From positions 1-53,498 of the forward strand of contig JAFYYG010000018.1 in assembly GCA_017557625.1 (NCBI GenBank): a stretch of DNA of 53,498 nucleotides, in the 5' to 3' direction. Source of the DNA: Muribaculaceae bacterium (lineage in GTDB: Bacteria > Bacteroidota > Bacteroidia > Bacteroidales > Muribaculaceae). Shown one piece after another: positions 18,039 through 32,765 of the stretch. Within the stretch, counting starts at the first letter, position 1. Each line of letters opens with the position of its first letter. Under the pieces are notes generated by a model, which was not told where the DNA came from, did no database searches, and worked only from the letters and a program-made list of their open reading frames with translations. The position numbers and the translations under genes were made by a program.

Positions 18039-18068
18039 TAATATCCTTAAAGGATAAAACCCATAATC

Positions 18069-18102
18069 AAAAGTGGCGACTCTCACAGGGTTGCCACTTT
18101 TT
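18069..18102 (+). terminator. Terminator of the SusCD operon
   Basis: AAAAGTGGC pairs with GCCACTTTT around a 15-nt loop, with a short T-run. The remaining gap to 18457 holds repeats (18160-18284) and a promoter. Confidence 0.85.
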
Positions 18103-18159
18103 GCGTGTAGTGAGGTGGGGGGCACATCAGCCGTGGGTCTCCACTCCTCCCGATTACAT

Positions 18160-18191
18160 CAGCCGGAGGCTGACCTCTGAGTAGCCGGGGG
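18160..18191 (+). repeat. Family A repeat, collapsed copy
   Basis: The small hairpin and linker CAGCCGGAGGCTGACCTCTG are identical to those of the full copy 44 bp downstream, followed by AGTAG. The large stem-loop is missing: the sequence jumps from CC directly to GGGGG, as if the hairpin between the C and G runs had been deleted. Confidence 0.75.
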
Positions 18192-18203
18192 TACCATGTC
18201 ACT

Positions 18204-18284
18204 CAGCCGGAGGCTGACCTCTGTGTGTCCCCCAGTACCGCTAGCGCAACGAGCGCCAGCGAGTGGAGATAGCGGCACTGGGGG
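18204..18284 (+). repeat. Family A structured repeat, copy 1
   Basis: Order of parts: small hairpin CAGCC-GGA-GGCTG, linker ACCTCTGTGTGT, left arm CCCCCAGT-A-CCGCTA, loop with GAGCGCCAGCGA, right arm TAGCGG-C-ACTGGGGG. The A/C mismatch in the stem recurs at the same place in copy 2. See copies at 32008-32091 and 32422-32503. Confidence 0.88.
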
Positions 18285-18360
18285 TAGTGCTTACGGCTGA
18301 GGGTTTATGTGTTTTTTCAAAAAAGGTGTGAAAAATCTTGTTTGTTTTGATATTTTTTCT

Positions 18361-18368
18361 TACTTTTG
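18361..18368 (+). promoter_or_regulatory. -7 box of the dockerin-protein gene
   Basis: TACTTTTG matches TAnnTTTG, about 90 nt upstream of the ATG at 18458. Candidate TTTG -33 boxes at 18341-18349 are closer than the usual 19-21 nt. Confidence 0.45.
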
Positions 18369-18457
18369 CACAATCTATGTAAAGATATGAACTGATACTA
18401 TTATTTTTAGAGATTATAATTCTTTTATTTATTAACTAAACAAAACTCAATTAGATT

Positions 18458-20515
18458 ATGAAGAAAATTTTGACTCTTCTTTTCGCAGTTGTGACTGTTG
18501 CTGCTTTTGCTGCACCAAAAGTACAGAAAGCTCACAAGCTCCAGCCACAAAAATCGGAGGCTAAGATTGAGATGAAAGCTCAAAAGGGTGACTTGTACAC
18601 TGGCAAGGCCAGCATGATGAGGGACTTCACTTCGGGTACCGACACCATGTACATGACTCCTGTGGGAACTTTCTTCTCAGCATTCTTCCCCTACAGTGAC
18701 AGCTTCTTCTACAGCTACAATTTTGCTCTGGTTCCTGGCAACACCGAGTTAACTTGGACCAACATCTCTACAGGTATCGCAAGCGACACCTACGACTGGG
18801 TTTATTACAATCCAGGCCTTGATGAGGAGTACCTCTCTATTGAAGAAGGCGTGAAAGACTTGGTTTGCACATTCCCCAACTATCCTGGATGGTGGATTTC
18901 ACCAATGCTTTATGCCGATGCTTATAACCAGACTGATGACGAAAATGAGAACTACTTCACTTGGGGCGGTGCCTTGATCATGGGTGGTAAGGCTGAGCAA
19001 GACGTGCTTGGCGACGGTACTACCCTGACCAACATGTATCAGTTCTCGCCACGTGCCGACTACAGCGACATCATGCGCACTCAGTTCGGTGCTGGTTATA
19101 GCGAAGACACCAACGACTTCTTCGGTGATCTGCCCGATGGCTACAAACCCGACGGTGCCGTAAATGGTAAGATTCAGAATTTCGTTCAGATCTTCAACTA
19201 TCCTGGCAAGCCCTACAACTTCTCACGCATCCAGTTGTATGCTTGGTGCAGTGCTGCTCAAAAAGATGAACTTACTGCTAAAGTTTGCCAAATTAAAGAT
19301 GGCATGATTATGATGGATGAGCCAATCGCTGAAGCTACGTATGTATTCCCTGAGGCTGTATTGGGTGAAATCACTGCAATCGACTTCTACTTTGAGAAAG
19401 AGGATCCCGAACTCGGCCTTACCGAGGAGGACTGGCTGGAGATCGATGGCGACATCGCTATTGTTATTGAGGGTGTGAATGATATTGAAGAGGTTTCTCC
19501 AATCCTGAACGCTATGAGTCGTGTAGCCGACTTGGCTCACGATGAGCTCTACTCTCAGTTCTGCAATGGCTATGCTATGTGGGACTTCTACGATGCAACT
19601 GGTGCTGTTATCGAGACCGGCTACATCCCCTGCCACATGGGTTACTACTGGGGATCTGGCGACGACAGCGGTCTTCCCGAGAACCTGCTGCTCTCTATCA
19701 ACGCTCAGTTCGCTTACATCGAGACTGTAGCTGAGAGCGCTACCGAGTACACAATCCCAACTACAGGTGGTAACTTTACTCTCGAGCTCAAGGCCAGCGA
19801 GCCTTACGATGCTTGGGCTATAGATGATATCCCCGAGTGGATTACTATCGAGGCTGAGGATGAGATGGAAGTTGACGATGAGGGCTATGAGTCTTATGCT
19901 GGCTACACCACTCTCACTATCACCGTTGAGCCTAACAACACCGGCGAGCTTGTTTACACCCTCCCAGGCACTTCGTTCACTATCAAGGTCGGCGAGGTTG
20001 TTGAAGAGCCTGTTTACTATCTCGTTGGTACCTTCAATGAGTGGAGCCAGGCAGATGGTATGTTAGAGTTCGTTGACAACGAAGGCGTTCTTGAGGCTAC
20101 TGCTGAGCTCGAGGCTGGCGCTGAGTTCAAGGTTATCACTCCTAACGGTGATGGCTGGACTTGGTATGGTGGCCAAGACGACAATGGCGTTGGCTACTTC
20201 CTCATCAACGACGGTCTGATGAATGTTCCTCTGAGTCTGGTTGACGGCGCTAACTTCCGCCTGGAGAAGGCTGGCAAGTATACCTTCCAACTCGATCCAA
20301 CCGCTATGACCCTCACTGTAGTTCCTGAGGCTGCTCCTGTAGTTCCTGGCGACGTTGACGGTGACGGTTATGTTACTGCTGCCGACGTAACCGCGCTCTA
20401 CAACTGGATGCTCTCCGGCGACGATTCAGCTCTCGTTAATCCTGATCAGGATGGCGACGGCAACATCACAGCTGGTGATGTAACTGCAGTTTATAACATC
20501 CTTCTTGGTCAATAA
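18458..20515 (+). CDS. Secreted multidomain protein with C-terminal type I dockerin
   Basis: The 685-residue protein has a signal peptide (MKKILTLLFAVVTVAAFA). Residues about 50-415 form an unassigned all-beta region. Residues about 425-515 resemble a BACON domain (TTGGNFTLELKAS...PEWITIEAED). Residues about 518-625 form a starch-binding-type beta module opening with YYLVGTFNEWSQ. Residues 629-685 are a type I dockerin with two Ca-binding loops, DVDGDGYVTAAD and DQDGDGNITAGD, each followed by a helix (ALYNWML, AVYNILL). Dockerins bind cohesins in cellulosomes, but no cohesin is visible here, and in Bacteroidales the partner is usually unknown. No catalytic domain is recognised. Confidence 0.88.
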   Translation: MKKILTLLFAVVTVAAFAAPKVQKAHKLQPQKSEAKIEMKAQKGDLYTGKASMMRDFTSGTDTMYMTPVGTFFSAFFPYSDSFFYSYNFALVPGNTELTWTNISTGIASDTYDWVYYNPGLDEEYLSIEEGVKDLVCTFPNYPGWWISPMLYADAYNQTDDENENYFTWGGALIMGGKAEQDVLGDGTTLTNMYQFSPRADYSDIMRTQFGAGYSEDTNDFFGDLPDGYKPDGAVNGKIQNFVQIFNYPGKPYNFSRIQLYAWCSAAQKDELTAKVCQIKDGMIMMDEPIAEATYVFPEAVLGEITAIDFYFEKEDPELGLTEEDWLEIDGDIAIVIEGVNDIEEVSPILNAMSRVADLAHDELYSQFCNGYAMWDFYDATGAVIETGYIPCHMGYYWGSGDDSGLPENLLLSINAQFAYIETVAESATEYTIPTTGGNFTLELKASEPYDAWAIDDIPEWITIEAEDEMEVDDEGYESYAGYTTLTITVEPNNTGELVYTLPGTSFTIKVGEVVEEPVYYLVGTFNEWSQADGMLEFVDNEGVLEATAELEAGAEFKVITPNGDGWTWYGGQDDNGVGYFLINDGLMNVPLSLVDGANFRLEKAGKYTFQLDPTAMTLTVVPEAAPVVPGDVDGDGYVTAADVTALYNWMLSGDDSALVNPDQDGDGNITAGDVTAVYNILLGQ

Positions 20516-20619
20516 TCCAAACTAACCGACATTTATTAAGAGAGACTACTCATTTTTAATTCACGTTTATTATTTATTAGTCACACACAAGAGTAGTCAA
20601 TCTCAAATAAATATCCCAA

Positions 20620-20650
20620 AAAAGGCGGACCTCATTGGCCCGCCTTTTAC
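20620..20650 (+). terminator. Terminator of the dockerin-protein gene
   Basis: AAAAGGCGG pairs perfectly with CCGCCTTTT around an 11-nt loop about 105 nt after the stop codon. Confidence 0.85.
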
Positions 20651-20683
20651 TTTTCTGTTTTTGCCATGTGCAAGCGTTTTGGG

Positions 20684-20796
20684 GCGCTTCGCTTAAAATT
20701 TTATTAAAATTAATTTTAAAATTTCATATCTGATGGTAACAGATGTTTCTCACTAATTTTTTTAAAAATTTTCATTTAATTTTATGCGCGAAGCGC
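20684..20796. repeat. AT-rich imperfect inverted repeat (MITE-like)
   Basis: GCGCTTCGC at 20684-20692 is matched by GCGAAGCGC at 20788-20796, with extended AT-rich arms that pair imperfectly. A small ATCTG/CAGAT hairpin sits near the centre (about 20730-20745). It lies in the 365-bp gap between convergent genes, which also holds the terminator at 20620 and the tandem repeat at 20825. Confidence 0.55.
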
Positions 20797-20824
20797 GACC
20801 ATTCAGTATCTAACGCCATTGTGC

Positions 20825-20883
20825 ATTGTGCATTATGAATTGTGCATTATGCATTGTGCATTATGAATTGTGCATTATGCATT
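20825..20883. repeat. 28-bp tandem repeat of GTGCATTATG units
   Basis: Two perfect copies of a 28-bp unit built from ATTGTGCATT and ATGAATTGTG run directly into the stop codon of the downstream minus-strand gene (20882-20884), with further degenerate TTGTGCA units just upstream. Confidence 0.85.
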
Positions 20884-21454
20884 AGATAACGGTGTCTTCG
20901 TCGATGAGGTTGTTGAGGAGGGCATAGACGGTGAGGCCGGCGACGCTCTTTATGCCGGTCTTGCGCACGATGTTCTTGCGGTGGGTGGTCACGGTGAACA
21001 CGCTCACGTTGAGGCGCGCGGCGATTTCTTTGTTTGAGAGACCTTTTGCCACCTCTATCAATACTGCCGTCTCGCGACGGGTGAGTTCGTGGCTGCTGAT
21101 GGCGGTGTCGCCAGTCTGCGCCTTGGCGCTTATCTCAAGCACCGTTTGCAGTATCGACTGTTGACTGTCGCGGATGTCGATTATTCCGTCGAAGCGCTTC
21201 AGCCTCGCCTGCTTCACATACTGATACACCAGTGCCACCACCGCCATGCTGCGGCCGTTGCGCAGCTCGGTCACGTTGTCGTTGAGCGTGGGGTTGATGA
21301 TGAGGATGTCGGGCTTTAGCACGTCGAGACGGTTGCCCAGGTCCTCGGCACTGTATTCAGGATTCAGAATCTTGAGCTCGGCATGGTTGAGAGTCGCCAC
21401 CAACCCCTCCACGATGACTTCCGAAGGCTCTACTATCAATACTTTCCTTTTCAT
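20882..21454 (-). CDS. LuxR-type regulator with degenerate receiver domain
   Basis: The 190-residue protein keeps the outline of a NarL/FixJ response regulator. Its receiver (about 1-115) lacks the phosphorylation chemistry: the acidic pair after strand 1 is E9-P10, and the phospho-acceptor Asp is replaced by Asn54 (ILIINPT). The LuxR helix-turn-helix (about 125-185) is intact: LTRRETAVLIEVAKGLSNKEIAARLNVS, shown here in part. Its ATG overlaps the hemerythrin stop by 4 nt (ATGA at 21451-21454), so translation is coupled. The regulator may be controlled by its partner instead of a histidine kinase. DNA target unknown. Confidence 0.9.
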   Translation of the reverse strand: MKRKVLIVEPSEVIVEGLVATLNHAELKILNPEYSAEDLGNRLDVLKPDILIINPTLNDNVTELRNGRSMAVVALVYQYVKQARLKRFDGIIDIRDSQQSILQTVLEISAKAQTGDTAISSHELTRRETAVLIEVAKGLSNKEIAARLNVSVFTVTTHRKNIVRKTGIKSVAGLTVYALLNNLIDEDTVI

Positions 21455-22221
21455 GGCTTTGCGGATTTTTCGAGTTGTTTCACGTAAGGCCCAAGAATCT
21501 TGTCCTCGATGATGGCGTGCTTTCGCAGGTCGTGCGAGAGCTGCAGGATGTCAAAAATCATGTCGATGGCATCGTCATCGCCATGTGAGGGTGAGAGTGG
21601 TAGCTCCCCCTCTAAGATAGAGGGGGATAAAGGGGGAGTATGAAAACCCTCTTTATGTGATGAACTGGGCAGATATTTGAAAATAATCTGCACTAAATCG
21701 CTAAGTTTCTCTTCGAGGTTGTCGTGGGTGTCGAGATAGGATTTTATCGTGAATTTGTCGCAGTTCTCACGGTTGAGCAGTCGCTTGATGTGAGGATACA
21801 CAATCTTCTCCTCATGAGCGAAATGCTCGCGCACTTCCTCGATATAGGCGTTGAAAAACTGCTTTATCGCCTTGCCGGCGCGTGGCGGCAGCATGTCGGC
21901 GATTTTCTCGAGGTGATGCCCTATGTGAGGCAGACGGCGGTTGAGGTAGTAGTCGTGCGAGCGCAGCAGGTAAGGCACGAGGCCCTCCATCGGCGTGGCG
22001 CGCAACTTTGCTGGCGACGGCACGTAGTTGTCGTTGCTGTAAACCTCACAGATGAGCAGGAAAAACTGTGGGTTCACGCCGTTCTCGGCACACACCTGTG
22101 CTATCGTCTTGTCGCCAAATCCCATAGGGATGCCAAAATGCGACAACGTGAGCAGCAACTGAGGCTGAGCAGTGATAAGCGCCGACAGGTTGTCGGTTTC
22201 TTTGTAAAGGTATTCGTTCAT
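21451..22221 (-). CDS. Hemerythrin (HHE)-domain protein with internal repeat insertion
   Basis: The 256-residue protein begins at the ATG at 22221 (MNEYLYKETD); the frame runs on to 22272, but that part overlaps the promoter. Residues about 1-65 resemble the ScdA/DUF542 N-terminal module (HFGIPMGFGDKTIAQVCAENG). The four-helix hemerythrin domain has diiron-type ligands in SHDYY, HIGHH, EHFAHEEKIVYPH, THDN and SHDLRKHAIIED. Such domains sense oxygen, nitric oxide or iron or store diiron centres. Between the third and fourth helices, residues about 190-212 are a Pro/Ser-rich stretch (PPLSPSILEGELPLSP) encoded by a copy of dispersed repeat family B. It is translationally coupled to the LuxR-type regulator, suggesting a sensor-regulator pair. 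Confidence 0.88.
   Translation of the reverse strand: MNEYLYKETDNLSALITAQPQLLLTLSHFGIPMGFGDKTIAQVCAENGVNPQFFLLICEVYSNDNYVPSPAKLRATPMEGLVPYLLRSHDYYLNRRLPHIGHHLEKIADMLPPRAGKAIKQFFNAYIEEVREHFAHEEKIVYPHIKRLLNRENCDKFTIKSYLDTHDNLEEKLSDLVQIIFKYLPSSSHKEGFHTPPLSPSILEGELPLSPSHGDDDAIDMIFDILQLSHDLRKHAIIEDKILGPYVKQLEKSAKP
21604..21644. repeat. Family B repeat inside the hemerythrin gene
   Basis: A 9-bp perfect stem CCCCCTCTA/TAGAGGGGG with an AGA loop is followed by ATAAAGGGGGAGTATGA. Copies at 32187-32235 and 32285-32322 share CTCTAAGATAGAG and the GGAGTATGA end. Here the element is translated in frame on the minus strand. Confidence 0.85.
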
Positions 22222-22242
22222 GATTGATGTATTTTCATGCGA

Positions 22243-22273
22243 CAAAGTTAGGGAGAATTTCGCATTATGCAAA
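22243..22273 (-). promoter_or_regulatory. Promoter of hemerythrin-LuxR operon
   Basis: On the minus strand TTTG (22273-22270), a 19-nt spacer and TAACTTTG (22250-22243) fit the Bacteroidota consensus, 21 nt before the ATG at 22221. The remainder of the gap up to 22512 is AT-rich, with a CTTGCTC...GAGCGTGAGCA palindromic stretch near 22388-22420 and no gene. Confidence 0.65.
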
Positions 22274-22512
22274 ATCCTCCCTAATCATTCTTTTTTTCCA
22301 AATTGGCCATGTGTTGCCGAACACGCAACCATCCTTTCTGCTAGATCAAACAAAAACAACAAAAATGCGATTAAGCGAGTCCAAGCTAAGCTTGCTCAAT
22401 GCATTGCGAGCGTGAGCATTTTATATAAAACCTGACAAGTATAACAAAAAATATTTGTTGCTTTTGTTTTTATTTGTTGAGTTTGTTTGATAAAATGAGT
22501 TGGAGGGGGCGC

Positions 22513-23970
22513 TTATTTCTCTGGTACTTCCTCGAGGGCCTTAACCAACAGCTTCCAGAATGGCTCGGCTGCGGGGATGTAGGCGCGCTCGATGGTAGTG
22601 TGAGGGCTCTTCAGCGTGGGACCGAAGCTCACAACATCCATGTGCGGGTACTTGCCCAGGATGATTGAGCACTCCAATCCGGCGTGGTCAACTTGCACGA
22701 TGCCTTCCTCGTTGAAGAGTTTCTTGTAGATGTCGAGCAGCATGTGGAGCGCCTCGCTGTCGGGGTTTGGATCCCAGCCTATGTAGTCGCCGCCAGTCTC
22801 CACCTTGAAGTCGGCGAGGTGGAAGCATGTCATGAGCATCTTCACGATGTAGTCCTTCATGTCCTCACGAGCCGAACGGGCGAGAATCTTCACTGCCGCC
22901 TTGCCGTCCTCGATGTCTATGATGGCGAGGTTGCTCGAGGTCTCCACCACGTTGGGATAAGCAGGAATGAAGCGTACCACGCCGTCGTGGCAAGCGTAGA
23001 GCGCACGCAGGATAGTGGTCTGGTCGTCGAGTGCCATCTTCATCTTGGGACGGTCAATCTTCTTGAGGGTGAGGTCAACATTGTCCTCGATGAGCTTGAA
23101 CTGGCTCTCCCACTCGGTCTTCAAGTTCTTGATGAGCTTCTTCATGCCCTTGAGGTTGTCCTCGGGAATGGTCAGCACTGTCTCGGCCTTGAATGGGATG
23201 GCGTTGCGCATGTTGCCTCCGTGCCAGCTCACCAGACGGGCCTTGTGGTCAACTATGGCGAGTTGCACGAGGCGGGCCATCAGCTTGTTGGCGTTGGCGC
23301 GGCCCTCGTGAATCTCGAGTCCGCTATGTCCGCCCTTGAGGCCCTTGAGGGTAACGCGCACGGCAATTTCACCCGAGGTGGTCTTCACCTCGTTGTATTT
23401 ACGGGTAGCGGTAACGTCGATGCCACCGGCGCTGCCAATCACGAACTTGCCCCAAGTCTCACTGTCGAGGTTGAAGAGGATGTCGCCCTTCATCTGGCCC
23501 TTAGGCAGGTCGTTGGCGCCATACATGCCAGTCTCCTCGTCTTTAGTGATAAGACCTTCGATGGGACCGTGCTTGAGGGTGTTGTCCTCCATCACAGCCA
23601 TGATGGCTGCGATGCCCAGACCGTCGTCGGCACCCAGAGTTGTGCCTTTTGCCTTGATCCAGTCGCCGTCGATATATGGCTCAATGGGGTCGGTCTCGAA
23701 GTTGTGCTTGCTCTCAGGTGTCTTTTGAGGTACCATGTCCATGTGTGCCTGCATAGTGATGCACTTGCGGTTCTCCATGCCTGGAGTTGCGGGCTTACGC
23801 ATCACGATGTTGCCGGCAGGGTCTTGGAAAGCCTCCACGCCCACCTTCTTGGCGAAGTCGAGCAGGTATTTCTGGATTTTCTCTACATGTCCCGAAGGAC
23901 GGGGAACTTGTGTCAGCGCATAGAAATTGCGCCAGATGCACGTCGGTTGAAGTTTTTCAATCTCGTTCAT
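22513..23970 (-). CDS. pepD: Cytosol non-specific dipeptidase (aminoacyl-histidine dipeptidase, M20C)
   Basis: The 485-residue enzyme begins at the ATG at 23970 (MNEIEKLQPTCIWRNFYAL), which is the usual PepD N-terminus; the frame extends to 24024 but would overlap the promoter. Metal-binding motifs of the M20 family are intact: QAHMDMVP, the GADDGLGIA segment with the bridging Asp, and DEETGMYGA with the catalytic Glu. It hydrolyses dipeptides in the cytoplasm and would complete breakdown of imported peptides. It stands alone with its own promoter. Confidence 0.95.
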   Translation of the reverse strand: MNEIEKLQPTCIWRNFYALTQVPRPSGHVEKIQKYLLDFAKKVGVEAFQDPAGNIVMRKPATPGMENRKCITMQAHMDMVPQKTPESKHNFETDPIEPYIDGDWIKAKGTTLGADDGLGIAAIMAVMEDNTLKHGPIEGLITKDEETGMYGANDLPKGQMKGDILFNLDSETWGKFVIGSAGGIDVTATRKYNEVKTTSGEIAVRVTLKGLKGGHSGLEIHEGRANANKLMARLVQLAIVDHKARLVSWHGGNMRNAIPFKAETVLTIPEDNLKGMKKLIKNLKTEWESQFKLIEDNVDLTLKKIDRPKMKMALDDQTTILRALYACHDGVVRFIPAYPNVVETSSNLAIIDIEDGKAAVKILARSAREDMKDYIVKMLMTCFHLADFKVETGGDYIGWDPNPDSEALHMLLDIYKKLFNEEGIVQVDHAGLECSIILGKYPHMDVVSFGPTLKSPHTTIERAYIPAAEPFWKLLVKALEEVPEK

Positions 23971-24023
23971 TGCTGTTTTTGTTAATGTGTAAATTAAGTT
24001 TGCTGTTTTTCTTTTCAATGCCA

Positions 24024-24056
24024 CAAAGATAACGATTTTATATCACATCACCCAAA
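24024..24056 (-). promoter_or_regulatory. Promoter of pepD
   Basis: On the minus strand TTTG (24056-24053), 21 nt and TATCTTTG (24031-24024) match the consensus well, about 54 nt before the start at 23970. Confidence 0.65.
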
Positions 24057-24074
24057 TAAAACCGAGAAAAAAGA

Positions 24075-24156
24075 AAAATCGGCAAAAGAGAACCGACCCC
24101 TTTTGCCGAAAAAGCGAAAAAACGGCAAAAGAGAACCGACCCCTTTTGCCGATTTT
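24075..24156. repeat. Tandem pair of CGGCAAAA/TTTTGCCG palindromes
   Basis: Two units, 24080-24108 and 24123-24151, are identical (CGGCAAAAGAGAACCGACCC, then CTTTTGCCG) and repeat with a 43-bp period. The pair is also enclosed by AAAATCGGCAAAA and its reverse complement. Each unit shares the core GACCCCTTTTG with the GGGGTC palindrome at 4649-4689, so this looks like a diverged, asymmetric relative. It lies between the AAA+ gene stop and the pepD promoter. Confidence 0.85.
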
Positions 24157-24160
24157 GGTG

Positions 24161-25861: not shown

Positions 25862-25911
25862 AGTGCTGTGATATAAATGTTAATAATTCTCTTTCCTTGT
25901 AGTTGCGGCTG

Positions 25912-25919
25912 CAAAGGTA
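25912..25919 (-). promoter_or_regulatory. -7 box of the AAA+ gene
   Basis: TACCTTTG on the minus strand, about 50 nt upstream of the start at 25861; no clear -33 box. Confidence 0.45.
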
Positions 25920-26126
25920 GGGGAGTGCTACGCAGCCTTTTTTCGTTTTTTCTTTTTTTGAATATAAATAGAAACGAAGTGAGAAAAATTTAATGAAATC
26001 CCATCGTTTTAACATTTTTTATAGAATTATCTCTTCATTATTTCTTGTATTGCAAAGATAGACGGCTGTTGTGCCAAAACACGGCACAGGTATCATAAAA
26101 GATGACAATTGTGAACTGTTGCCGAA

Positions 26127-26151
26127 TTTTGCGAGGCTTACGCTCGCAAAA
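26127..26151. other. Intergenic hairpin between divergent genes
   Basis: TTTTGCGAG pairs perfectly with CTCGCAAAA around a 7-nt loop in the 411-bp gap between the AAA+ gene and the Nudix gene. Apart from the two promoters, the rest of this gap is AT-rich with no reading frame I would defend. Confidence 0.5.
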
Positions 26152-26216
26152 CTACAACACCAACTGCCTGGAAAACTGTGCTGGAAAACATTTTTTGAAA
26201 AAAAATGAGAAAAAAA

Positions 26217-26248
26217 TTTGCACAGAAGAAAAAAAGGCATTATTTTTG
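26217..26248 (+). promoter_or_regulatory. Promoter of the Nudix-sirtuin pair
   Basis: TTTG (26217-26220), a 20-nt spacer and TATTTTTG (26241-26248) fit the consensus, 24 nt before the ATG. Confidence 0.65.
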
Positions 26249-26272
26249 CGTAAATAATACACGTTAAAAATT

Positions 26273-26962
26273 ATGGAAGAAGAAAAGAATTATTCTTACA
26301 AATATCCGCATCCTGCAGTGACTACCGACTGCGTGATATTTGGCTTTGACGGCACTAAACTCAAAGTGCTGCTTATTGAGCGCGGCATCGACCCTTACAA
26401 AGGCAAGTGGGCGCTGCCCGGCGGTTTCTTGCGAATGGATGAGGATGCCGAGAAAGGCGCGTTGCGTGAATTGAAGGAGGAGACGGGTCTCGAAGCTGCC
26501 TACATCAAGCAGTTTCACACCTTTACTGCCCCGAACCGTGACCCCCGCGAGCGGGTGATAACTGTTGCCTACTATGCGTTGGTGCGCTTGCAGGAAGTGA
26601 AAGGTGGCGATGATGCCGCTCGTGCCGAGTGGTTCGCGCTCGACAATGTGCCAGCTCTGGCTTTTGACCACGACCAGATTCTGCGCATTGCCACCCGTGA
26701 GCTCCGCCGCCAGATTCATTTCGAGCCAGTAGGCTTTGAATTGTTGCCCAAGCAGTTTACCATCAAAGAGTTGCAGGCTTTATACGAAGCCATCCTTGAC
26801 GTGAAGTTCGACCGCCGCAATTTCTACAAGAAAATGCAGCATCTAGAACTCCTCACACAAGTAAATGACACAAGCACCACAAGAAAACAGCCCTTCCTCT
26901 TTGAGTTTAATGGTGAGAAATATAAAGAGTTAAAACACAGAGGTTTCAGGCTGGAATTCTAG
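26273..26962 (+). CDS. NrtR/AraR-like Nudix-fold transcriptional regulator
   Basis: The 229-residue protein joins an N-terminal Nudix domain (about 10-145) to a C-terminal winged-helix region (about 150-229), the architecture of NrtR-family regulators. The Nudix box is complete: GFLRMDE, seven residues, then RELKEETGL, so hydrolase activity cannot be excluded. The wing region contains FTIKELQALYEAIL and RRNFYKKMQHL, as in this family. Family members sense ADP-ribose, NAD intermediates or sugars. The following gene encodes an NAD-consuming sirtuin, which supports an NAD-linked role; sugar control as in Bacteroides AraR is the alternative. Confidence 0.85.
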   Translation: MEEEKNYSYKYPHPAVTTDCVIFGFDGTKLKVLLIERGIDPYKGKWALPGGFLRMDEDAEKGALRELKEETGLEAAYIKQFHTFTAPNRDPRERVITVAYYALVRLQEVKGGDDAARAEWFALDNVPALAFDHDQILRIATRELRRQIHFEPVGFELLPKQFTIKELQALYEAILDVKFDRRNFYKKMQHLELLTQVNDTSTTRKQPFLFEFNGEKYKELKHRGFRLEF

Positions 26963-27002
26963 ATTAAGTGTAAAAGAGTAAAGAGTTAAGTGTCAAGTAA
27001 GT

Positions 27003-27046
27003 GACTAGATGTTCTAGAAATTCTAGATTTTCTAGAATGTCTAGAA
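27003..27046. repeat. Cluster of CTAGA palindromes
   Basis: Five CTAGA sites at about 8-11 bp spacing, four of them within TCTAGA-type palindromes such as TTCTAGAA, lie between the Nudix gene and the sirtuin gene; a sixth (TTCTAGA) overlaps the Nudix stop codon. It could be a multi-site operator or a folding element. Confidence 0.6.
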
Positions 27047-27087
27047 AAACAAAAAACTTAGAACTAAAAACTAATAACTAACCAATT

Positions 27088-27786
27088 ATGAGAAATTTAG
27101 TAGTATCTTCAGGTGCCGGCATGAGTGCCGAGAGTGGCATCAAGACTTTCCGCGATGCCGATGGATTGTGGGAGAACTATCCCGTTATGGACGTGGCGAG
27201 CCACGACGGATTCCTGCGCGATCCAGCGCTCATCCATAGGTTTTACAACATGCTTAGGGGTAAACTGGTTGATGCCCAGCCCAATGCGGCTCACTATGGA
27301 CTTGTTGAGCTTGAGAAGTATTTTAACGTGAACGTCATCACCCAGAATGTTGACGACCTGCATGAGCGCGCTGGCTCAAAGAATGTGCTGCACCTGCATG
27401 GCGAACTCATGAAGGTGCGCTCGCTGAGGCATGAGGAGCGTGTCTATGAGCTGCCGTGCGACCAACTCACCGACAAAGGGCTTGAAACCAGCGTAGACAC
27501 CCGCGACCCCTATGGCGACCCAGTGCGCCCGCACATCGTCTTCTTCCAGGAGGCTGTACCCAACATGGACCAGGCGTGCATGTTGGCGCAAGATGCCGAC
27601 GTGTTTGTGGTAATCGGCACTTCGCTGGTGGTCTATCCCGCTGCATCGCTGTTGCATTACGCTCCCCGTAATGCCGAGGTTTATTATATCGATCCCCGCC
27701 CCAGCGCCGTGCCAAGTTATGTGCATGTCATTGATAAGCCAGCTACAGAGGGCGTGAAAGAGCTTATTGAGATTCTTACAAAATAA
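27088..27786 (+). CDS. cobB: SIR2-family NAD-dependent protein deacylase
   Basis: The 232-residue sirtuin has the NAD-binding motif GAGMSAESGIKTFRD, the TQNVDDLHERAG motif and the catalytic His in HLHGEL. It removes acyl groups from lysines, consuming NAD. Zinc-ligand Cys pairs are absent, as I recall for many Bacteroidota sirtuins. Tyr53 is kept, but the position three residues later, Arg in CobB/SIRT5-type desuccinylases, is Leu56 (FYNMLR). Substrate preference may therefore differ. The upstream neighbour is an NrtR-like regulator, 125 bp away. Confidence 0.93.
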   Translation: MRNLVVSSGAGMSAESGIKTFRDADGLWENYPVMDVASHDGFLRDPALIHRFYNMLRGKLVDAQPNAAHYGLVELEKYFNVNVITQNVDDLHERAGSKNVLHLHGELMKVRSLRHEERVYELPCDQLTDKGLETSVDTRDPYGDPVRPHIVFFQEAVPNMDQACMLAQDADVFVVIGTSLVVYPAASLLHYAPRNAEVYYIDPRPSAVPSYVHVIDKPATEGVKELIEILTK

Positions 27787-27825
27787 TTATTATTGGATAA
27801 TACGTGATAATAGCGCAAAATTCCT

Positions 27826-27833
27826 TATCTTTG
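27826..27833 (+). promoter_or_regulatory. -7 box of the OPT transporter gene
   Basis: TATCTTTG lies 35 nt before the ATG at 27869. No -33 box at standard spacing. Confidence 0.5.
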
Positions 27834-27868
27834 TAGCTTTGAAATATCCAATAACTAATAAAAACTAT

Positions 27869-29923
27869 ATGCAAGACGAAAAAGATTTACAGCAACCTCA
27901 GGATGCCGTTGAGATTCCCGAGAGCGTCGTGCAGAAAACGGTGCAAGCCGAGCTTCCCGATGGCGTAATCGACGAAAATCAAGTGGAACTCCCTGAGAAT
28001 GCCTTCCGACCTCTGAAAGAAGGTGAGAAGTATGTCCCCATTCTACGTCCCGAGAAGAACTATCCCGAAGTGACACCCTATTCGGTGTCATTAGGATTGA
28101 TTATGGCGGTGATTTTCAGTGCCGCCGCGGCTTATCTGGGACTGAAGGTGGGACAAGTGTTTGAAGCAGCGATTCCTATTGCCATTATCGCGGCAGGTAT
28201 CGCCGGTGTCACCAAGCGTAAGAACTCGCTTGGCGAGAATGTGATAATCCAATCTATTGGTGCTGCCAGTGGCATTGTGGTGGCAGGTGCCATCTTCACC
28301 CTGCCAGCCCTTTACATCCTGCAGGACAAGTACCCCGATATGACCGTCAACTTCCTTGAGGTGTTCCTCAGTTCGATGCTTGGCGGCTTACTGGGAATAT
28401 TGTTCTTTATCCCCTTCCGCAAATACTTTGTGAAGGAGAAGCACGGCGACTTCCCGTTCCCCGAGGCTACAGCAACCACTCAGGTGCTGGTGCAGGGCCA
28501 GAAGGGTGGCGAACAGGCCAAGCCATTGCTCATCGCAGGATTGGTTGGTGGTATATACGACTTCCTGATGAGCTCATTCGGATGGTGGAAAGAGGTGCTC
28601 TCAACCTCTGTGATTCCGTCAATGCAAAACTTTATTCATGAGACTAAATTGCTCTTCAAGGTGAATATCAGTGCCGCGACTTTAGGTCTCGGCTACATCA
28701 TTGGCTTGAAATATAGTTTCATTATTTTTGCTGGTAGCGCATTGATGTGGTGGGTTGTAGTACCCCTATTTGCCGAGGTTAGCCCAACATTGGCGGCTCT
28801 CGATCCCGACACGATATTCACTCAGTTCGCTCGTCCTATAGGCATTGGCGGTATTGCCATGAGTGGTATCATTGGCATCATCAAGTCGTGGGGGGTAATC
28901 AAGAATGCCGTGGGACTTGCCGGCAAGTCTTTTAAGCAAGGTGCTAATGTGGAGAAGCCAGAGCGCACTCAGCGCGACATCTCGATGAAGGCATTAGTGT
29001 TTGCTCTGGGCGCGGCGCTCCTCGTGACTTTCGTGTTCTTCTGGATAGGTGTGATAGGCAATCTGCTTCAGGCCATCGTGGCATTTATCGTTGTCGTGGT
29101 CATCGCTTTCTTGTTCACTACTGTGGCAGCCAACGCTATCGCAATTGTGGGTAGTAATCCTGTGAGCGGTATGACACTGATGACTCTTATTATCGCTTCG
29201 GGTATCTTCGTGGCAGTGGGCCTTAGTGGATGGCAAGGCATCGTGGCATCGATGATTATTGGTGGTGTGGTATGTACCGCGCTGTCGATGGCTGGCGGCA
29301 TGGTGACCGATATGAAGGTTGGCTACTGGATTGGCACTACTCCCGCAAAGCAGCAGACTTGGAAGATGCTCGGTACTGTGCTTTCGGCTGCTACAGTGGG
29401 CGGTGTGATGATTATCCTGAACAAGACCTACGGATTCTATGCTGGCGCTGTGCCAGGCGAAGATCCTCTTGTCGCTCCTCAAGCCAATGCCATGGCTGCA
29501 GTTATCGACCCCTTGATGACTGGAGGTCAGACGCCGTGGATGTTCTATATCTGTGGAGCTATATTGGCATGCCTGCTCAACTGGCTAAAGGTTCCAGCTT
29601 TGCCTTTCTCGCTGGGTATGTTCATCCCCTTCCAGCTCAACACCCCGCTGCTCATTGGTGGTATCATCAGCTGGTTCGTCAGCACTCGCAGTAAAGACGA
29701 GAGGATCAATAAGGCCCGCATGGACAAAGGCACTCTCATCGCCAGCGGTTTCATTGCCGGTGGTGCACTGATGGGCGTGGTGAGCGCCGCGATGAAGTTT
29801 GCAGGATTTAAGTACGAGAGTCCGCTCAGCGACAGCTTGTCGAGCGTAATCGGACTTGTAGTCTATATCGCTCTGATTATATTCTTTGCGGTTTCTTGTC
29901 TCCGTGCCAAGAAAACAGAGTAA
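27869..29923 (+). CDS. OPT-family oligopeptide transporter
   Basis: The 684-residue inner-membrane protein starts at the ATG at 27869 (MQDEKDLQQPQDAVEIPES); the longer frame from 27767 would include the sirtuin 3' end and the promoter. A soluble N-terminus of about 70 residues precedes roughly 14-16 hydrophobic segments. Family landmarks include YSVSLGLIMAVIFSAAAAYLGLKVG, FPFPEATAT and NPVSGMTLMTLII. OPT proteins import oligopeptides or metal chelates driven by protons. Together with PepD and the metallohydrolase operon it fits peptide use, though the three are not one operon. Confidence 0.92.
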   Translation: MQDEKDLQQPQDAVEIPESVVQKTVQAELPDGVIDENQVELPENAFRPLKEGEKYVPILRPEKNYPEVTPYSVSLGLIMAVIFSAAAAYLGLKVGQVFEAAIPIAIIAAGIAGVTKRKNSLGENVIIQSIGAASGIVVAGAIFTLPALYILQDKYPDMTVNFLEVFLSSMLGGLLGILFFIPFRKYFVKEKHGDFPFPEATATTQVLVQGQKGGEQAKPLLIAGLVGGIYDFLMSSFGWWKEVLSTSVIPSMQNFIHETKLLFKVNISAATLGLGYIIGLKYSFIIFAGSALMWWVVVPLFAEVSPTLAALDPDTIFTQFARPIGIGGIAMSGIIGIIKSWGVIKNAVGLAGKSFKQGANVEKPERTQRDISMKALVFALGAALLVTFVFFWIGVIGNLLQAIVAFIVVVVIAFLFTTVAANAIAIVGSNPVSGMTLMTLIIASGIFVAVGLSGWQGIVASMIIGGVVCTALSMAGGMVTDMKVGYWIGTTPAKQQTWKMLGTVLSAATVGGVMIILNKTYGFYAGAVPGEDPLVAPQANAMAAVIDPLMTGGQTPWMFYICGAILACLLNWLKVPALPFSLGMFIPFQLNTPLLIGGIISWFVSTRSKDERINKARMDKGTLIASGFIAGGALMGVVSAAMKFAGFKYESPLSDSLSSVIGLVVYIALIIFFAVSCLRAKKTE

Positions 29924-29948
29924 TTTCTCATAATAAATAACAGTTTTT

Positions 29949-29991
29949 ATTGCTGGCGAGTGCCTTTTGGTCCTTGCCAGCAATGTTTTTT
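29949..29991 (+). terminator. Terminator of the OPT gene
   Basis: ATTGCTGGC pairs with GCCAGCAAT, extended by GAG/CTT, followed by G and six T residues, about 25 nt after the stop. Confidence 0.88.
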
Positions 29992-30036
29992 GCTCCTATT
30001 AATCAATAGGATTGTGATAATACGGCAAATTTTGCC

Positions 30037-30044
30037 TACCTTTG
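30037..30044 (+). promoter_or_regulatory. -7 box of the DEAD-box helicase gene
   Basis: TACCTTTG lies 17 nt before the ATG at 30062. A TTG at 30012-30014 is 22 nt upstream and could be the -33 element. Confidence 0.55.
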
Positions 30045-30061
30045 CACTCAAAATAGATAAT

Positions 30062-31927
30062 ATGGCAACATTCAAAGAACTTGGCGTGCGCGACGACCTG
30101 CTGCGCGCTATCGAGATGATGGGCTACGAGAAACCCATGCCCATTCAGGAAATGGTGATTCCGCATCTGCTCAACGAGGAAACCGACGTGGTGGGACTGG
30201 CGCAGACTGGCACCGGCAAGACCGCAGCCTTCGGCCTGCCTATGCTGCAGCGCATCGACACCACTTCACAAGAGACTCAGGCACTGATTCTTGACCCCAC
30301 GCGTGAGCTGTGCCTTCAGACCAAGACCGACCTTGAGGACTATTCCCGCTATGTTGATGGACTGAGAATTGTGGCAGTGTATGGCGGGGCAAGTATTGAG
30401 TCGCAGATTAAGGCTGTGAAACGCGGAGTGCAGGTGATTGTGGCAACGCCCGGTCGCTTGCAGGACCTCATCAGGCGTGGGGTGGTGAAGCTCGATGCTG
30501 TGCGCACCGTCATCCTCGATGAGGCCGACGAGATGCTCAATATGGGCTTCATTGATGACATTAACAACATCTTGATTAACGTCCCCGATGAGCGCAAGAT
30601 GCTGATGTTCAGTGCCACTATGCCTCGTGAGATTGCCAATATCGCCAAGGACTTCATGCACAACCCAGTGGAGTTTGTCGCTGGCACCCGCAATGAGGGT
30701 TCGGCAAATGTGCGACACATATATTATATGGTGAAGGCGAGCGACAAGTACCTCGCCCTAAAGCGCATCGTCGATTATCTGCCGCGCATTTACGGTATCG
30801 TCTTCTGTCGCACCCGTGCCAGCGCGCAGGAGGTGGCGTCGCAGCTCATTCAGGATGGTTATGATGCCGACGCTCTGCATGGCGACCTCTCGCAGGCGCA
30901 GCGCGATGCCGTGATGAAGAAGTTCCGTGAGCGCAACCTGCAGCTGCTTGTTGCCACCGACGTGGCGGCGCGAGGCCTCGACGTTAACGACCTCACCCAC
31001 ATCATCAGCTACAGTCTGCCCGACGACAACGACATCTACAACCACCGCAGCGGGCGCACAGGACGTGCCGGAAAGACAGGCATCTCCATCGCCATCATCC
31101 ACAGCCGTGAGCGCAACAAGCTCAAGCAAATCGAGAAACAGATAGGCAAGGAGTTTGAACGGCGAGAAGTGCCGAAAGCCGAGCAAATCATCGAGAAGCA
31201 GCTCTTCAACCTTGCCGACCGCCTCGAGAACGTGGAGGTGCGTGAAGAGGAGATAGCTCCCTATCTCCCCAATGTGCTTAAGAAGCTGTCGTGGCTCAGC
31301 GGTGAGGACGTGGTGAAGCGATTGCTGTCGCTGGAGTTCAACCGTATGCTCGACTACTACAAGAAGGCACCTGTGCTCGACATCGTGCCCGAGAAGAAGG
31401 AACGTAAGCGTGGCGAGAAGAAAGAACGCAAGCCAAACGGCGAGAAAGACCGCCGCACGGGTGAGGATGGCTACGAGCGGGTGTTCATCAATGTGGGCAA
31501 GAGCCACGGCTTCTATGCCCCTGACCTAATCCGCTTGATTAACGCCACCGAAGGCGGCAAGAATGTGGGAATCGGGCGTATTGACCTGTTGACCAACTAT
31601 TCGCTCTTCGACGTGCGGCATGGTGAGGCTCACAAAGTCATCAATGCCCTGCGTAACAGTGAGTTTTATGGCAAACGCCTATATCTCGAGATTGCTGATG
31701 CCAACAAAGACTATGCCTCAATCACCTACGAGGGCGAGGTGAAGAAGAATCGCGCCGAGCGACGGAGGGAGAAGTTCAAAGCAATGGAGCGCGAACGTGA
31801 GCGCCGTCGCAGCGACCGCCGCACCCGCCGCGATGCCGAGCGAGGCTTCAAAAAACGTGGCAGGAACAACGACGCCCCCGCCGGCAACTACGACAAATTC
31901 ATGAAAAAAGGCCGTCGCAAGAAGTGA
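30062..31927 (+). CDS. DEAD-box RNA helicase, DeaD/CsdA type
   Basis: The 621-residue helicase starts at the ATG at 30062 (MATFKELGVRDDLL); the longer frame begins inside the upstream terminator. Q motif, Walker A AQTGTGKT (near residue 47), PTREL, TPGRL, DEAD (ILDEADEML), SAT, and the second RecA domain with HRSGRTGRAGKTG are all present. A DbpA-type RNA-binding domain follows (about 475-550, VFINVGKSHGFYAPDLIRLI). The tail is rich in Lys and Arg (RRERRRSDRRTRRDAERG) and probably disordered. It likely unwinds structured RNA in ribosome assembly and cold adaptation. A perfect GGGGTC palindrome starts 4 nt after the stop. Confidence 0.96.
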   Translation: MATFKELGVRDDLLRAIEMMGYEKPMPIQEMVIPHLLNEETDVVGLAQTGTGKTAAFGLPMLQRIDTTSQETQALILDPTRELCLQTKTDLEDYSRYVDGLRIVAVYGGASIESQIKAVKRGVQVIVATPGRLQDLIRRGVVKLDAVRTVILDEADEMLNMGFIDDINNILINVPDERKMLMFSATMPREIANIAKDFMHNPVEFVAGTRNEGSANVRHIYYMVKASDKYLALKRIVDYLPRIYGIVFCRTRASAQEVASQLIQDGYDADALHGDLSQAQRDAVMKKFRERNLQLLVATDVAARGLDVNDLTHIISYSLPDDNDIYNHRSGRTGRAGKTGISIAIIHSRERNKLKQIEKQIGKEFERREVPKAEQIIEKQLFNLADRLENVEVREEEIAPYLPNVLKKLSWLSGEDVVKRLLSLEFNRMLDYYKKAPVLDIVPEKKERKRGEKKERKPNGEKDRRTGEDGYERVFINVGKSHGFYAPDLIRLINATEGGKNVGIGRIDLLTNYSLFDVRHGEAHKVINALRNSEFYGKRLYLEIADANKDYASITYEGEVKKNRAERRREKFKAMERERERRRSDRRTRRDAERGFKKRGRNNDAPAGNYDKFMKKGRRKK

Positions 31928-31930
31928 TTT

Positions 31931-31963
31931 TGAGACAAATGGGGTCTGACCCCATTTGTCTCA
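31931..31963. repeat. REP-like palindrome, GGGGTC family, copy 3
   Basis: Perfect 16-bp arms TGAGACAAATGGGGTC/GACCCCATTTGTCTCA around one T. It may double as a transcript end for the helicase gene. It is 26 kb from the RAYT gene, showing the repeat is dispersed. Confidence 0.95.
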
Positions 31964-32007
31964 TTTATTTCAGTCGCAGAAAGGCGGGGGAGACAAACCA
32001 TGCGTCT

Positions 32008-32091
32008 CAGCCGTTAGGCTGACCTCTGTGTAACCCCCAATACCGATTGCCGAAGTGAGCGCAGCGAACTGTAGGTAATCGGCATTGGGGG
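32008..32091 (+). repeat. Family A structured repeat, copy 2
   Basis: Small hairpin CAGCC-GTTA-GGCTG, linker ACCTCTGTGTAA, left arm CCCCCAAT-A-CCGATT, loop with GTGAGCGCAGCGAACTG, right arm AATCGG-C-ATTGGGGG. Compared with copy 1, the stem bases that changed did so on both arms, so pairing is kept. Confidence 0.9.
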
Positions 32092-32111
32092 TATAACTAC
32101 ATCCAGGAAAT

Positions 32112-32151
32112 AGTCGCTGAAGGCGACTCCCATGGACTGCGCTATAAACAA
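32112..32151 (+). repeat. GTCGC hairpin plus CCCATGGACTGCG repeat, copy 1
   Basis: AGTCGC-TGAAG-GCGACT hairpin followed by CCCATGGACTGCG, C, TATAAACAA. The second part recurs at 32361-32383 with one base changed. Confidence 0.8.
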
Positions 32152-32186
32152 TGTGAGGGTGTTGAAAGACTCTGAATTAAACGCAA

Positions 32187-32235
32187 CTCCTCCTCTAAGA
32201 TAGAGGAGGTGCCCCAATGGGGCGGAGGAGTATGA
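32187..32235 (+). repeat. Family B repeat, copy 2
   Basis: Stem CCTCCTCTA/TAGAGGAGG with AGA loop, then a GCCCC-AAT-GGGGC hairpin, then GGAGGAGTATGA. The stem differs from the copy at 21604 by a compensated C-G to T-A pair. It faces copy 3 in inverted orientation 50 bp away. Confidence 0.85.
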
Positions 32236-32284
32236 AAATGCCGAATGTGCTGACAATCAACAATATTTCAAATTCTTGTGCCTG

Positions 32285-32322
32285 TCATACTCCCCCCGCC
32301 CCCCTCTATCTTAGAGGGGGAG
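32285..32322 (-). repeat. Family B repeat, copy 3 (inverted)
   Basis: Reverse complement of the family: TCATACTCC, a C-rich spacer, CCCCTCTATCTTAGAGGGG. With copy 2 it forms an inverted pair around a 50-bp AT-rich spacer. Confidence 0.85.
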
Positions 32323-32360
32323 CTAAAAAAGCTTCGCATTTTTAGTTTGCAACAGCCTCC

Positions 32361-32401
32361 CCCATGGACTGCGTTATAAACAAGGGGTCGCCGCTGGCGA
32401 C
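32361..32401 (+). repeat. CCCATGGACTGCG repeat, copy 2, with GTCGCC hairpin
   Basis: CCCATGGACTGCG, T, TATAAACAA, then GGG and hairpin GTCGCC-GCT-GGCGAC. Compared with copy 1 the hairpin lies on the other side of the conserved block. Confidence 0.8.
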
Positions 32402-32421
32402 GAGGAGGTGGTGGTGGTCAT

Positions 32422-32503
32422 CCCCCCCTTGACGTTTATTCCGCTCGCTGTCGCTCGCTTCACAAGCGTCAAAGGGGGTTACTCAAAGGTCAGCCTTCGG
32501 CTG
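32422..32503 (-). repeat. Family A structured repeat, copy 3 (inverted)
   Basis: On the minus strand: small hairpin CAGCC-GAA-GGCTG, linker ACCTTTGAGTAA, left arm CCCCC(T)TTGACG, loop with GAAGCGAGCGACAGCGAG, right arm CGTCAAGGGGG. The stem sequence is unrelated to copies 1 and 2, while hairpin, linker, loop core and C5/G5 clamp are conserved. The rest of the 31928-32765 gap is AT-rich leader sequence with a promoter at 32709. Confidence 0.85.
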
Positions 32504-32708
32504 AATCGTGCATTCTGCTTTGTGTCTTCGATTTGTCTTCCCTACACCTTCCTGCGGCTCCCTCTCCACCCTCCACTCTCCACTCTCACCTTTTTGCAGC
32601 TGGGGTGTTAGTTTCTATATTATACATAAATCTTTTATTTATTGAATTATTTTTACATATTTACGACGAAAAGTTTCAAAAACATTAGTTTTATTGGTTT
32701 TTTTTAAA

Positions 32709-32716
32709 TATCTTTG
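32709..32716 (+). promoter_or_regulatory. -7 box of the BspA-type gene
   Basis: TATCTTTG lies 49 nt upstream of the ATG at 32766; no clear -33 TTTG at standard spacing. Confidence 0.5.
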
Positions 32717-32765
32717 TAGCCGAAACTGTGAAGATTATAAAAATCATAACCAAAAACCATATAGT

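What the first reader, a model, noticed from the sequence alone, without database searches (positions are those of the whole stretch)
18160..32503. Dispersed two-hairpin repeat (family A) whose large stem changes but stays paired
Copies at 18204-18284 and 32008-32091 (plus) and 32422-32503 (minus) are 81-84 bp long. They share a small hairpin (CAGCC, 3-4 nt, GGCTG), the linker ACCTYTGNGT, a C5/G5 clamp and a loop core GAGCG-CAGCGA. The stem inside the clamp differs: CCCCCAGT-A-CCGCTA, CCCCCAAT-A-CCGATT, and CCCCC-TTGACG, each matched by changes on the opposite arm. Copies 1 and 2 even share the same A/C mismatch. Conserved loop, conserved clamp and covarying stem mean that structure, not stem sequence, is maintained, as expected for a folded RNA, a hairpin recognised as single-stranded DNA, or a non-autonomous mobile element. 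I do not recognise the family.
Basis: partly seen in the sequence, partly recalled or inferred. Interest (0 to 1): 0.78.

Follow-up and report, generated by a model that had tools for sequence, protein, structure and literature searches.

The report
Three-hairpin repeat beside orphan transposase genes
The repeat belongs to a family of three-hairpin DNA elements scattered between genes in gut Bacteroidales; in related genomes copies sit against a single-strand DNA transposase gene of a type reported to have no such partner, so they are probably small mobile elements that this enzyme moves.

Summary
The three copies are real and are parts of a larger unit: small hairpin h1, a linker usually ending GTAA/GTAG, long hairpin h2 with a compensating stem, about 20 nt, small hairpin h3, then CCC. 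In 26 copies 15 of 25 pairs show two-sided changes; 96.9% of cells pair (shuffled 79.5%). Copies 2 and 3 are the halves of one inverted pair; three similar pairs lie at other sites.

Six of nine unit-bearing genomes carry one type of Y1 transposase gene; in all six it lies within 1.2 kb of units. Its motifs match TnpA-Y1 subclass 1.2, listed without REPs in a 2018 survey. In the window's family 55 of 62 such genes tested have flanking inverted repeats at E <= 1e-6, against 1 of 103 non-Y1 genes; phylum-wide only 4 of 27. In another genus a differently spelled unit has the same plan and its own covariation. A sister species has the transposase gene and eight units in the gap that holds copy 1.

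Best reading: REP-like, non-autonomous ssDNA elements of an orphan transposase subclass. Movement is inferred, not shown. The window's genome (88% complete) lacks the gene.

The parts
18160..18203 (+). collapsed unit: h1 and linker (18160-18182) followed by AGCCGGGGGTA, i.e. the body of h2 is missing
   Evidence: model match 18160-18188 with E 0.0013
18204..18284 (+). unit copy 1: h1 18204-18216, linker 18217-18228 (ends GTGT), h2 18229-18284; no convincing h3
   Evidence: same intergenic gap holds the transposase gene and eight units in RUG378
32007..32131 (+). left unit of the inverted pair: h1 32008-32021, linker 32022-32033 (ends GTAA), h2 32034-32091, h3 32113-32127, C-rich tail
32144..32377 (.). 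extra DNA in the centre of the inverted pair relative to its relative on contig C11; holds another dispersed repeat (CTCCTCCTCTAAGATAGAGGAGG / CCCCCTCTATCTTAGAGGGGGAG)
32383..32504 (-). right unit of the inverted pair, reading leftwards: h1 32491-32503, linker 32479-32490 (ends GTAA), h2 about 32423-32478, h3 32387-32401, C-rich tail
   Evidence: h3 also

Best explanation
The repeats are REP-like, non-autonomous single-strand DNA elements served by a Y1 (HUH) transposase of TnpA-Y1 subclass 1.2. Proposed working: when the top strand becomes single-stranded the unit folds into h1-h2-h3; the transposase recognises h2 together with the TAR trinucleotide (here GTAA/GTAG) directly 5' of its foot, as IS200/IS605 and REP enzymes read a hairpin plus a 5' guide; it cuts near the outer bases of the small hairpins and rejoins, so that single units, tandem arrays and tail-to-tail pairs spread to intergenic sites while the transposase gene stays flanked by units. 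Shown here: structure and covariation, sharp ends, dispersal, extragenic location, close linkage to subclass-1.2-type genes across a family, and differences between species at one orthologous site. Inferred: that the enzyme binds and cuts the unit, the guide role of TAR, the cut sites, and that copies move at all today.
For: Covariation in the window's family and separately in a second genus. In 6 of 6 genomes with the main-type gene it lies within 1.2 kb of units, 19 of the 64 strong units of those genomes. Flanking inverted repeats at E <= 1e-6 in 28 of 30 inspected and 27 of 32 held-out subclass-1.2 loci of the family, against 1 of 103 non-Y1 control genes, that one inside the RUG378 unit array. 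Rule h1 - 9-15 nt ending TAA/TAG - h2 met on the expected strand in 20 of 30 and 22 of 32 loci, against about 1% of shuffles. Sharp ends and h3 in 62 of 69 copies against 3.6 in shuffles. Units overlap long ORFs in 3 of 52 cases, random pieces in 736 of 1040. G.T outnumbers A.C 53 to 11 outside the conserved mismatch, pointing to the + strand as the folded one. The inverted pair recurs at four sites. At the gap of copy 1, three species have units and three have none.
Against: The window's own genome, UBA4259 and RGIG8108 have units (10, 16 and 7 matches at E <= 0.01, some weak) and no main-type gene; the window's genome is 88% complete, the completeness of the other two was not told. No cleavage, binding or movement was measured and no exact empty site was read. 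The species differences at the gap of copy 1 could be losses. The structural rule also rings on the wrong strand in 5 of 30 and 10 of 32 loci. Phylum-wide the inverted repeats are uncommon: 4 of 27 at 1e-6, 11 of 27 at 1e-4. The W motif of the protein is WG, not the WQ listed for subclass 1.2.
Confidence: 0.7

Rival explanations
1. Structured RNA: the units act mainly as transcribed hairpins (mRNA 3'-end protection, attenuation or a small RNA), and structure is kept for that reason.
For: Covariation with G.U-type pairs on one strand fits RNA as well as ssDNA; units lie between genes; h3 of the right unit rings as terminator-like.
Against: No Rfam family in the window; no terminator-like site at 17900-18500; an RNA role alone does not predict inverted units round one gene family, with different letters in each lineage. 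RNA use could exist in addition.
Confidence: 0.12
2. Transposase gene and flanking units form one ordinary IS200-like element that moves as a whole, and solo units are its decayed ends.
For: The gene is flanked by an upstream (+) and a downstream (-) unit within about 0.2 kb in RUG378, RUG13764, RGIG10066 and RUG228; the repeat often ends 1-20 nt after the stop codon in the family.
Against: One main-type gene per genome against 4 to 32 unit matches; 58 matches to the unit of one G084 gene; units also occur in tandem and as inverted pairs without a gene.
Confidence: 0.1
3. The units are moved by another enzyme, for example the other Y1 transposases of the window's genome, and subclass-1.2 genes merely land next to units.
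For: The window's genome has units but only other Y1 genes: window 4696-5523, one on C38 and a weaker match on C35.
Against: The window's Y1 gene is flanked by its own, different repeat (TGAGACAAATGGGGTC). Lineages of subclass 1.2 have differently spelled repeats beside the gene, which suggests pairing rather than chance landing.
Confidence: 0.06

Closest known systems
REP sequences, REPtrons and REPINs/BIMEs of class-2 TnpAREP (RAYT)
   Same: Dispersed extragenic hairpins with a GTAR-like tag at the hairpin foot, clustered round one Y1 gene, also as inverted pairs.
   Different: Three hairpins and about 130 nt instead of one hairpin of 21-65 nt (size from PMC6006769); GTAA more often than GTAG; transposase has the class-1 type Y motif (Y...Q) instead of the class-2 ..NP motif.
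IS200/IS605 elements and their non-autonomous derivatives
   Same: Y1 HUH transposase nearest in the PDB search to ISHp608 and related transposases; hairpin with a 5' tag.
   Different: The gene is flanked by inverted copies of one three-hairpin unit; one main-type gene and many solo units per genome. A tnpB neighbour was not searched for.
TIRtrons / TIRYT (Di Nocera et al. 2013, PMC3733652)
   Same: Y1 gene flanked by long, sometimes self-complementary inverted repeats that are also dispersed in the genome.
   Different: That paper describes them for RAYT-like (TIRYT) genes; here the protein has the subclass-1.2 motif and the repeat has a fixed three-hairpin plan that covaries.
TnpA-Y1 subclass 1.2 (Quentin et al. 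2018, PMC6006769)
   Same: Y motif Y...Q..HH, DHIH, 149 aa against a median of 148, Bacteroidetes.
   Different: Reported with REP 'no' and generally without typical IS200 terminal structures; here flanked by structured inverted repeats in most loci tested within one family.

Membership tests
REP sequence (class-2 TnpAREP partner) | repeated and extragenic | tested here: met
   4-32 matches per genome in nine genomes; 3 of 52 overlap long ORFs against 736 of 1040 random pieces
REP sequence (class-2 TnpAREP partner) | GT[AG]G tetranucleotide at the foot of the hairpin | tested here: not met
   of 69 copies GTAA 24, GTAG 8, NGTA 21 (foot called one base earlier), rest other; related tag, not the strict one
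REP sequence (class-2 TnpAREP partner) | single hairpin of 21-65 nt | tested here: not met
   h1, h2 and h3 in 62 of 69 copies by rule
REP sequence (class-2 TnpAREP partner) | cognate transposase of class 2 (Y motif ..NP) | tested here: not met
   adjacent protein has YIMNQKEHH; NCBIfam REP transposase model 22-24 bits against a cut-off of 80
REPtron | Y1 gene flanked by copies of the repeat | tested here: met
   6 of 6 main-type genes within 1.2 kb of units; 55 of 62 family loci with flanking inverted repeats at 1e-6
REPIN / BIME | two repeats in inverted orientation forming one unit | tested here: met
   window pair and relatives at three other sites; tail-to-tail 9 of 20 neighbour pairs
REPIN / BIME | mobilised by the cognate transposase | not testable with these tools
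   needs a biochemical or population test
TnpA-Y1 subclass 1.2 | HuH DH[IV]H and Y motif Y...Q..HH, about 148 aa | tested here: met
   DHIH/DHVH, YIMNQKEHH/YIMNQKDHH/YIINQKEHH, 149 aa
TnpA-Y1 subclass 1.2 | W motif WQ | tested here: not met
   main type reads GWGEGY or GWGSGY
TnpA-Y1 subclass 1.2 | groups with published subclass-1.2 members in a tree | not tested
   no published members were fetched
IS200/IS605 subclass 1.1 | many near-identical copies of the gene in a genome | tested here: not met
   one main-type gene in each of six genomes (the table lists the matches of PF01797)
IS200/IS605 subclass 1.1 | HUH Y1 transposase of the IS200 kind | tested here: met
   NF033573 66 bits against a cut-off of 55; PDB matches incl. 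ISHp608 at 6e-8
TIRtron | RAYT/TIRYT-type protein flanked by long terminal inverted repeats | tested here: inconclusive
   inverted repeats met; TIRYT protein groups and the GGGGWSAS motif not compared
Rfam RNA families | gathering score reached | tested here: not met
   0 matches in the window

The most novel reading that the evidence does not exclude
Subclass-1.2 Y1 transposases, so far orphans, are the engines of a separate REP-like world in Bacteroidales: a three-hairpin, about 130-nt ssDNA element (h1 - linker ending TAR - h2 - h3) whose plan is kept across genera while its sequence is rewritten by compensatory change, each lineage pairing its own unit with its own enzyme, and inverted pairs dispersing as units.
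Probability: 0.55. Interest if true: 0.75.

Novelty: new variant of a known kind. Interest (0 to 1): 0.62.

Why it matters
A survey of the Y1 transposases left subclass 1.2 with no DNA partner and without IS properties. If these units are its substrates, the orphan gets a function that can be tested at once: enzyme, substrate, strand and putative guide are all named. It would also show that REP-like systems arose on the IS200 side of the superfamily and not only in class 2, and give a case where substrate and enzyme diverge together while a three-part fold is kept.

Tried and rejected
Tandem G.A apex as a general signature: 19 of 26 copies of the window's family and 13 of 30 inspected loci, but 3 of 32 held-out loci (1.1 expected from shuffles, 4 on the wrong strand), so dropped as general; it is visible in the G084 family.

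Viral carriage: the exact pattern gave 0 stretches in viral contigs. CGTC-tagged REPs (PMC3733652): h3 often begins GTCGC, but that paper finds no transposase next to CGTC repeats; not pursued. An integron attC reading was not tested.

Exact empty sites: at the first site G411, G412 and G429 lack a unit, but the gap is too diverged to place an insertion point. At the second site (after the gene ending at 31927) none of 19 same-genus orthologs has a unit within the fetched flank of up to 1.5 kb (50 of 101 genomes matched, 20 loci were fetched, one of them the window's own), but no match to the downstream gene was seen, so no junction can be read. One search used a wrong offset (21 units) and was replaced.

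Rows dropped: one search left out 8 of 40 held-out loci (6 without the full motif, 2 with a short flank) and 3 of 30 phylum loci; two further family matches at contig ends were not fetched. Many held-out loci come from genomes that also gave inspected loci, so they are other genes, not all independent species. The structural rule was written after looking at the 30 inspected loci and, at part of the phylum set. One search used stricter filters and scored 31 of about 1000 candidates per genome, so weak copies may be missed; 10 of 79 full-length copies had no h2 by my rule; 3 of its 62 small hairpins are of neither usual type, and that of window copy 1 is an A/T hairpin that I do not count as h3. 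A2 leaves out the collapsed copy 18160, L030:5563, L031 (inverted apex), L035 and the chimeric L038:4080. A4 holds the 39 distinct copies in 20 fetched G084 stretches whose match began by query position 60 and reached 145. One search used 84 of the 111 rows.

Control at a looser cut-off: at E <= 1e-4, 7 of 107 control genes ring, i.e. 3 of 103 without the four Y1 genes.
Full report
The observation. The three copies are at the stated coordinates. Aligned, they share the small hairpin, the linker and the clamp, and each folds better than its shuffles as RNA and as DNA. The 'loop core' is largely paired. A pattern search with a variable loop found five places in the window's genome, four in the window and one on contig C11. 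A DNA search added an inverted partner on C11 and a left-truncated copy on C37.

The family. One exact-pattern scan of one genome per species gave 21 stretches: 20 come from records titled as Bacteroidales (Prevotellaceae, Muribaculaceae, Porphyromonadaceae and plain Bacteroidales MAGs; two titles name the rumen), and one, from a cyanobacterium (L032), looks like chance. Twenty-six copies were aligned. RNAalifold and the pair counts agree: 25 pairs, 96.9% of cells paired against 79.5% in shuffles, 15 pairs with changes on both sides (10.4 in shuffles), covariation score 0.479 against 0.154, slid controls at most 0.098. The copies are related, so the shuffles overstate significance; the slid controls keep relatedness.

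Anatomy. Of 110 distinct profile hits in the loci fetched by then, 79 were full-length over h1+h2 and 69 had h2 by my rule. A perfect small hairpin begins 17-30 nt after h2 in 62 of 69, against 3.6 expected from shuffled regions: 50 of the GTCGC type, 9 of the CAGCC type of h1, 3 other. Beyond T at -1 (87%) and three C after h3 (92%, 95%, 97%) there is little conservation, so the ends are sharp. Directly 5' of the h2 foot stand GTAA (24), GTAG (8) or NGTA (21) in 53 of 69 copies. An A.C mismatch next to a T-A pair recurs in 46 of 69; elsewhere in the stem G.T outnumbers A.C 53 to 11, which suggests that the + strand is the one that folds, though shared descent inflates such counts.

The inverted pair. 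Copies 2 and 3 are the halves of one element, about 32007-32504, whose centre holds a different repeat. Relatives on C11 and on two contigs of RGIG8108 match the two halves at about 86-89%. Against C11 and C178 the match ends within a few bases of the two outer h1 hairpins; the C88 pair is cut by the contig end on one side and its match runs about 20 nt past h1 on the other. Among 84 strong units, neighbours that start within 700 nt are tail-to-tail 9 times, same strand 7 times and head-to-head 4 times.

The transposase. Next to units in L029, L033, L038 and L039 lies a Y1 protein of 149 aa (L033 is read from a longer open frame). The two that were scanned match Pfam Y1_Tnp at about 1e-24, pass the cut-off of NCBIfam's IS200 model and stay far below that of its REP-transposase model. 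A profile search of the PDB gives seven transposase sequences at 1e-8 to 7e-6, ISHp608 among them, and nothing else at 1e-3 (that 2xm3 is the ISDra2 enzyme is recalled). The Y motif YIMNQKEHH matches subclass 1.2 of Quentin et al. 2018 (PMC6006769; read: abstract, sections 17 and 18, and passages), which lists REP 'no' for that subclass and calls it generally without typical IS200 terminal structures. The W motif differs (WG against WQ).

Linkage. Nine genomes were searched with the model and with PF01797. Six have the main-type gene, and in all six it lies within 1.2 kb of strong units: 8 of 28, 4 of 5, 1 of 9, 3 of 4, 1 of 14 and 2 of 4 of the strong units of those genomes; in two of the six the gene is near a contig end. 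The other three, the window's own among them, have units (10, 16 and 7 matches at E <= 0.01, some weak) and no main-type gene.

Beyond the genus. Of 149 genomes of the window's family 48 have a related protein at E <= 1e-30, but only 4, all of the window's genus, have this sequence of unit at E <= 1e-6 (strict filters). I therefore asked whether other lineages have other units. In 28 of 30 best loci the 700 nt on either side of the gene hold an inverted repeat at E <= 1e-6. In 32 further loci, tested with the rule unchanged, 27 do at 1e-6 and 29 at 1e-4. Of 107 control genes 5 do at 1e-6: three are subclass-1.2 genes, one is the window's other Y1 gene and one lies inside the RUG378 array, so 1 of 103 non-Y1 genes (3 of 103 at 1e-4). 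By eye and then by a fixed rule the common plan is h1, 9-15 nt ending TAA or TAG, h2: 20 of 30 inspected and 22 of 32 held-out loci, against about 1% of shuffles, though 5 of 30 and 10 of 32 also ring on the opposite strand. Phylum-wide, 82 of 247 genomes have a match at E <= 1e-20, but only 4 of 27 loci tested have the inverted repeats at 1e-6 (11 at 1e-4), so the generalisation is for the family.

A second lineage. The unit beside a subclass-1.2 gene of G084 (another genus) has 58 matches in that genome. Thirty-nine copies align into three hairpins in different letters, most with TAR before h2 and a C-rich tail after h3. RNAalifold predicts the three hairpins, and pair counts give 97.2% of cells paired against 90.6% and covariation 0.191 against 0.074, 0 of 500 shuffles as high, slid controls at most 0.051.

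A site compared between species. Window 15845-21872 is syntenic with RUG378. In the gap that holds copy 1 (18039-18457) RUG378 has the transposase gene and eight model matches; RGIG8108 has truncated units; G411, G412 and G429 have none. G412, whose sequence there prints the same as L029 (RUG13764), has units and the gene in the next stretch, about 2 kb on. So copy 1 sits where a sister species keeps the source locus: a remnant of it or an earlier state.

Prior reports. Six searches of the held open-access library (REP-associated tyrosine transposase + Bacteroidetes; REPIN + RAYT; REPtron; RAYT + Bacteroid + REP sequences; repetitive extragenic palindrom + Bacteroides + intergenic + hairpin + transposase; TnpAY1) listed nothing about a DNA partner of subclass 1.2 (listings only, apart from three papers). 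Most subscription papers and preprints are not held. PMC3733652 was read in section 16 and passages, PMC8266576 in abstract and outline only.

Verdict. The thing is a REP-like element family of an unusual three-hairpin form, tied to an orphan transposase subclass. The tie is strong; movement is inferred.

Noticed in passing
window 4653-5653: A second kind of Y1 transposase gene (ORF 4696-5523, -) lies between inverted copies of TGAGACAAATGGGGTCTGACCCC.TTTGTCTCA; a further copy is at 31931-31966 and related ones at 24067-24156. It resembles the TIRtrons of PMC3733652.
   Followed up: partly
window 21601-21626, 32187-32209, 32300-32325: Another dispersed inverted repeat, CTCCCCCTCTAAGATAGAGGGGGAG, sits in the centre of the inverted pair; it or a close relative is also in the copy-1 gap of G429 (L286) and after the second-site gene of G048 (L304).
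   Followed up: partly
L021:7576-7656 (-) and L031:2989-3070 (-): Two RUG378 units whose h2 differ by an inversion of the apical part of the hairpin; origin unexplained.
   Followed up: no
window 18160-18203: The collapsed unit keeps h1, linker and GGGGGTA but has lost the body of h2, as if the hairpin had been deleted between its arms.
   Followed up: no
G000 contig C55:10431-10506 (L019): A diverged hairpin with GACTGACCTATG before CCCCCAGTACCG, weakly matched by the model (E 0.0013): perhaps a distant relative of the unit.
   Followed up: no
L210, L222, L231, L237, L239 (other Bacteroidota): Subclass-1.2-type genes outside the family carry shorter flanking hairpins, some followed by GAATAG-CCCC or ATCGGTAGA; possibly simpler forms of the same unit.
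   Followed up: partly
window 32694-42485: A 3263-aa ORF with many 78-nt (26-residue) repeats next to the inverted pair.
   Followed up: no
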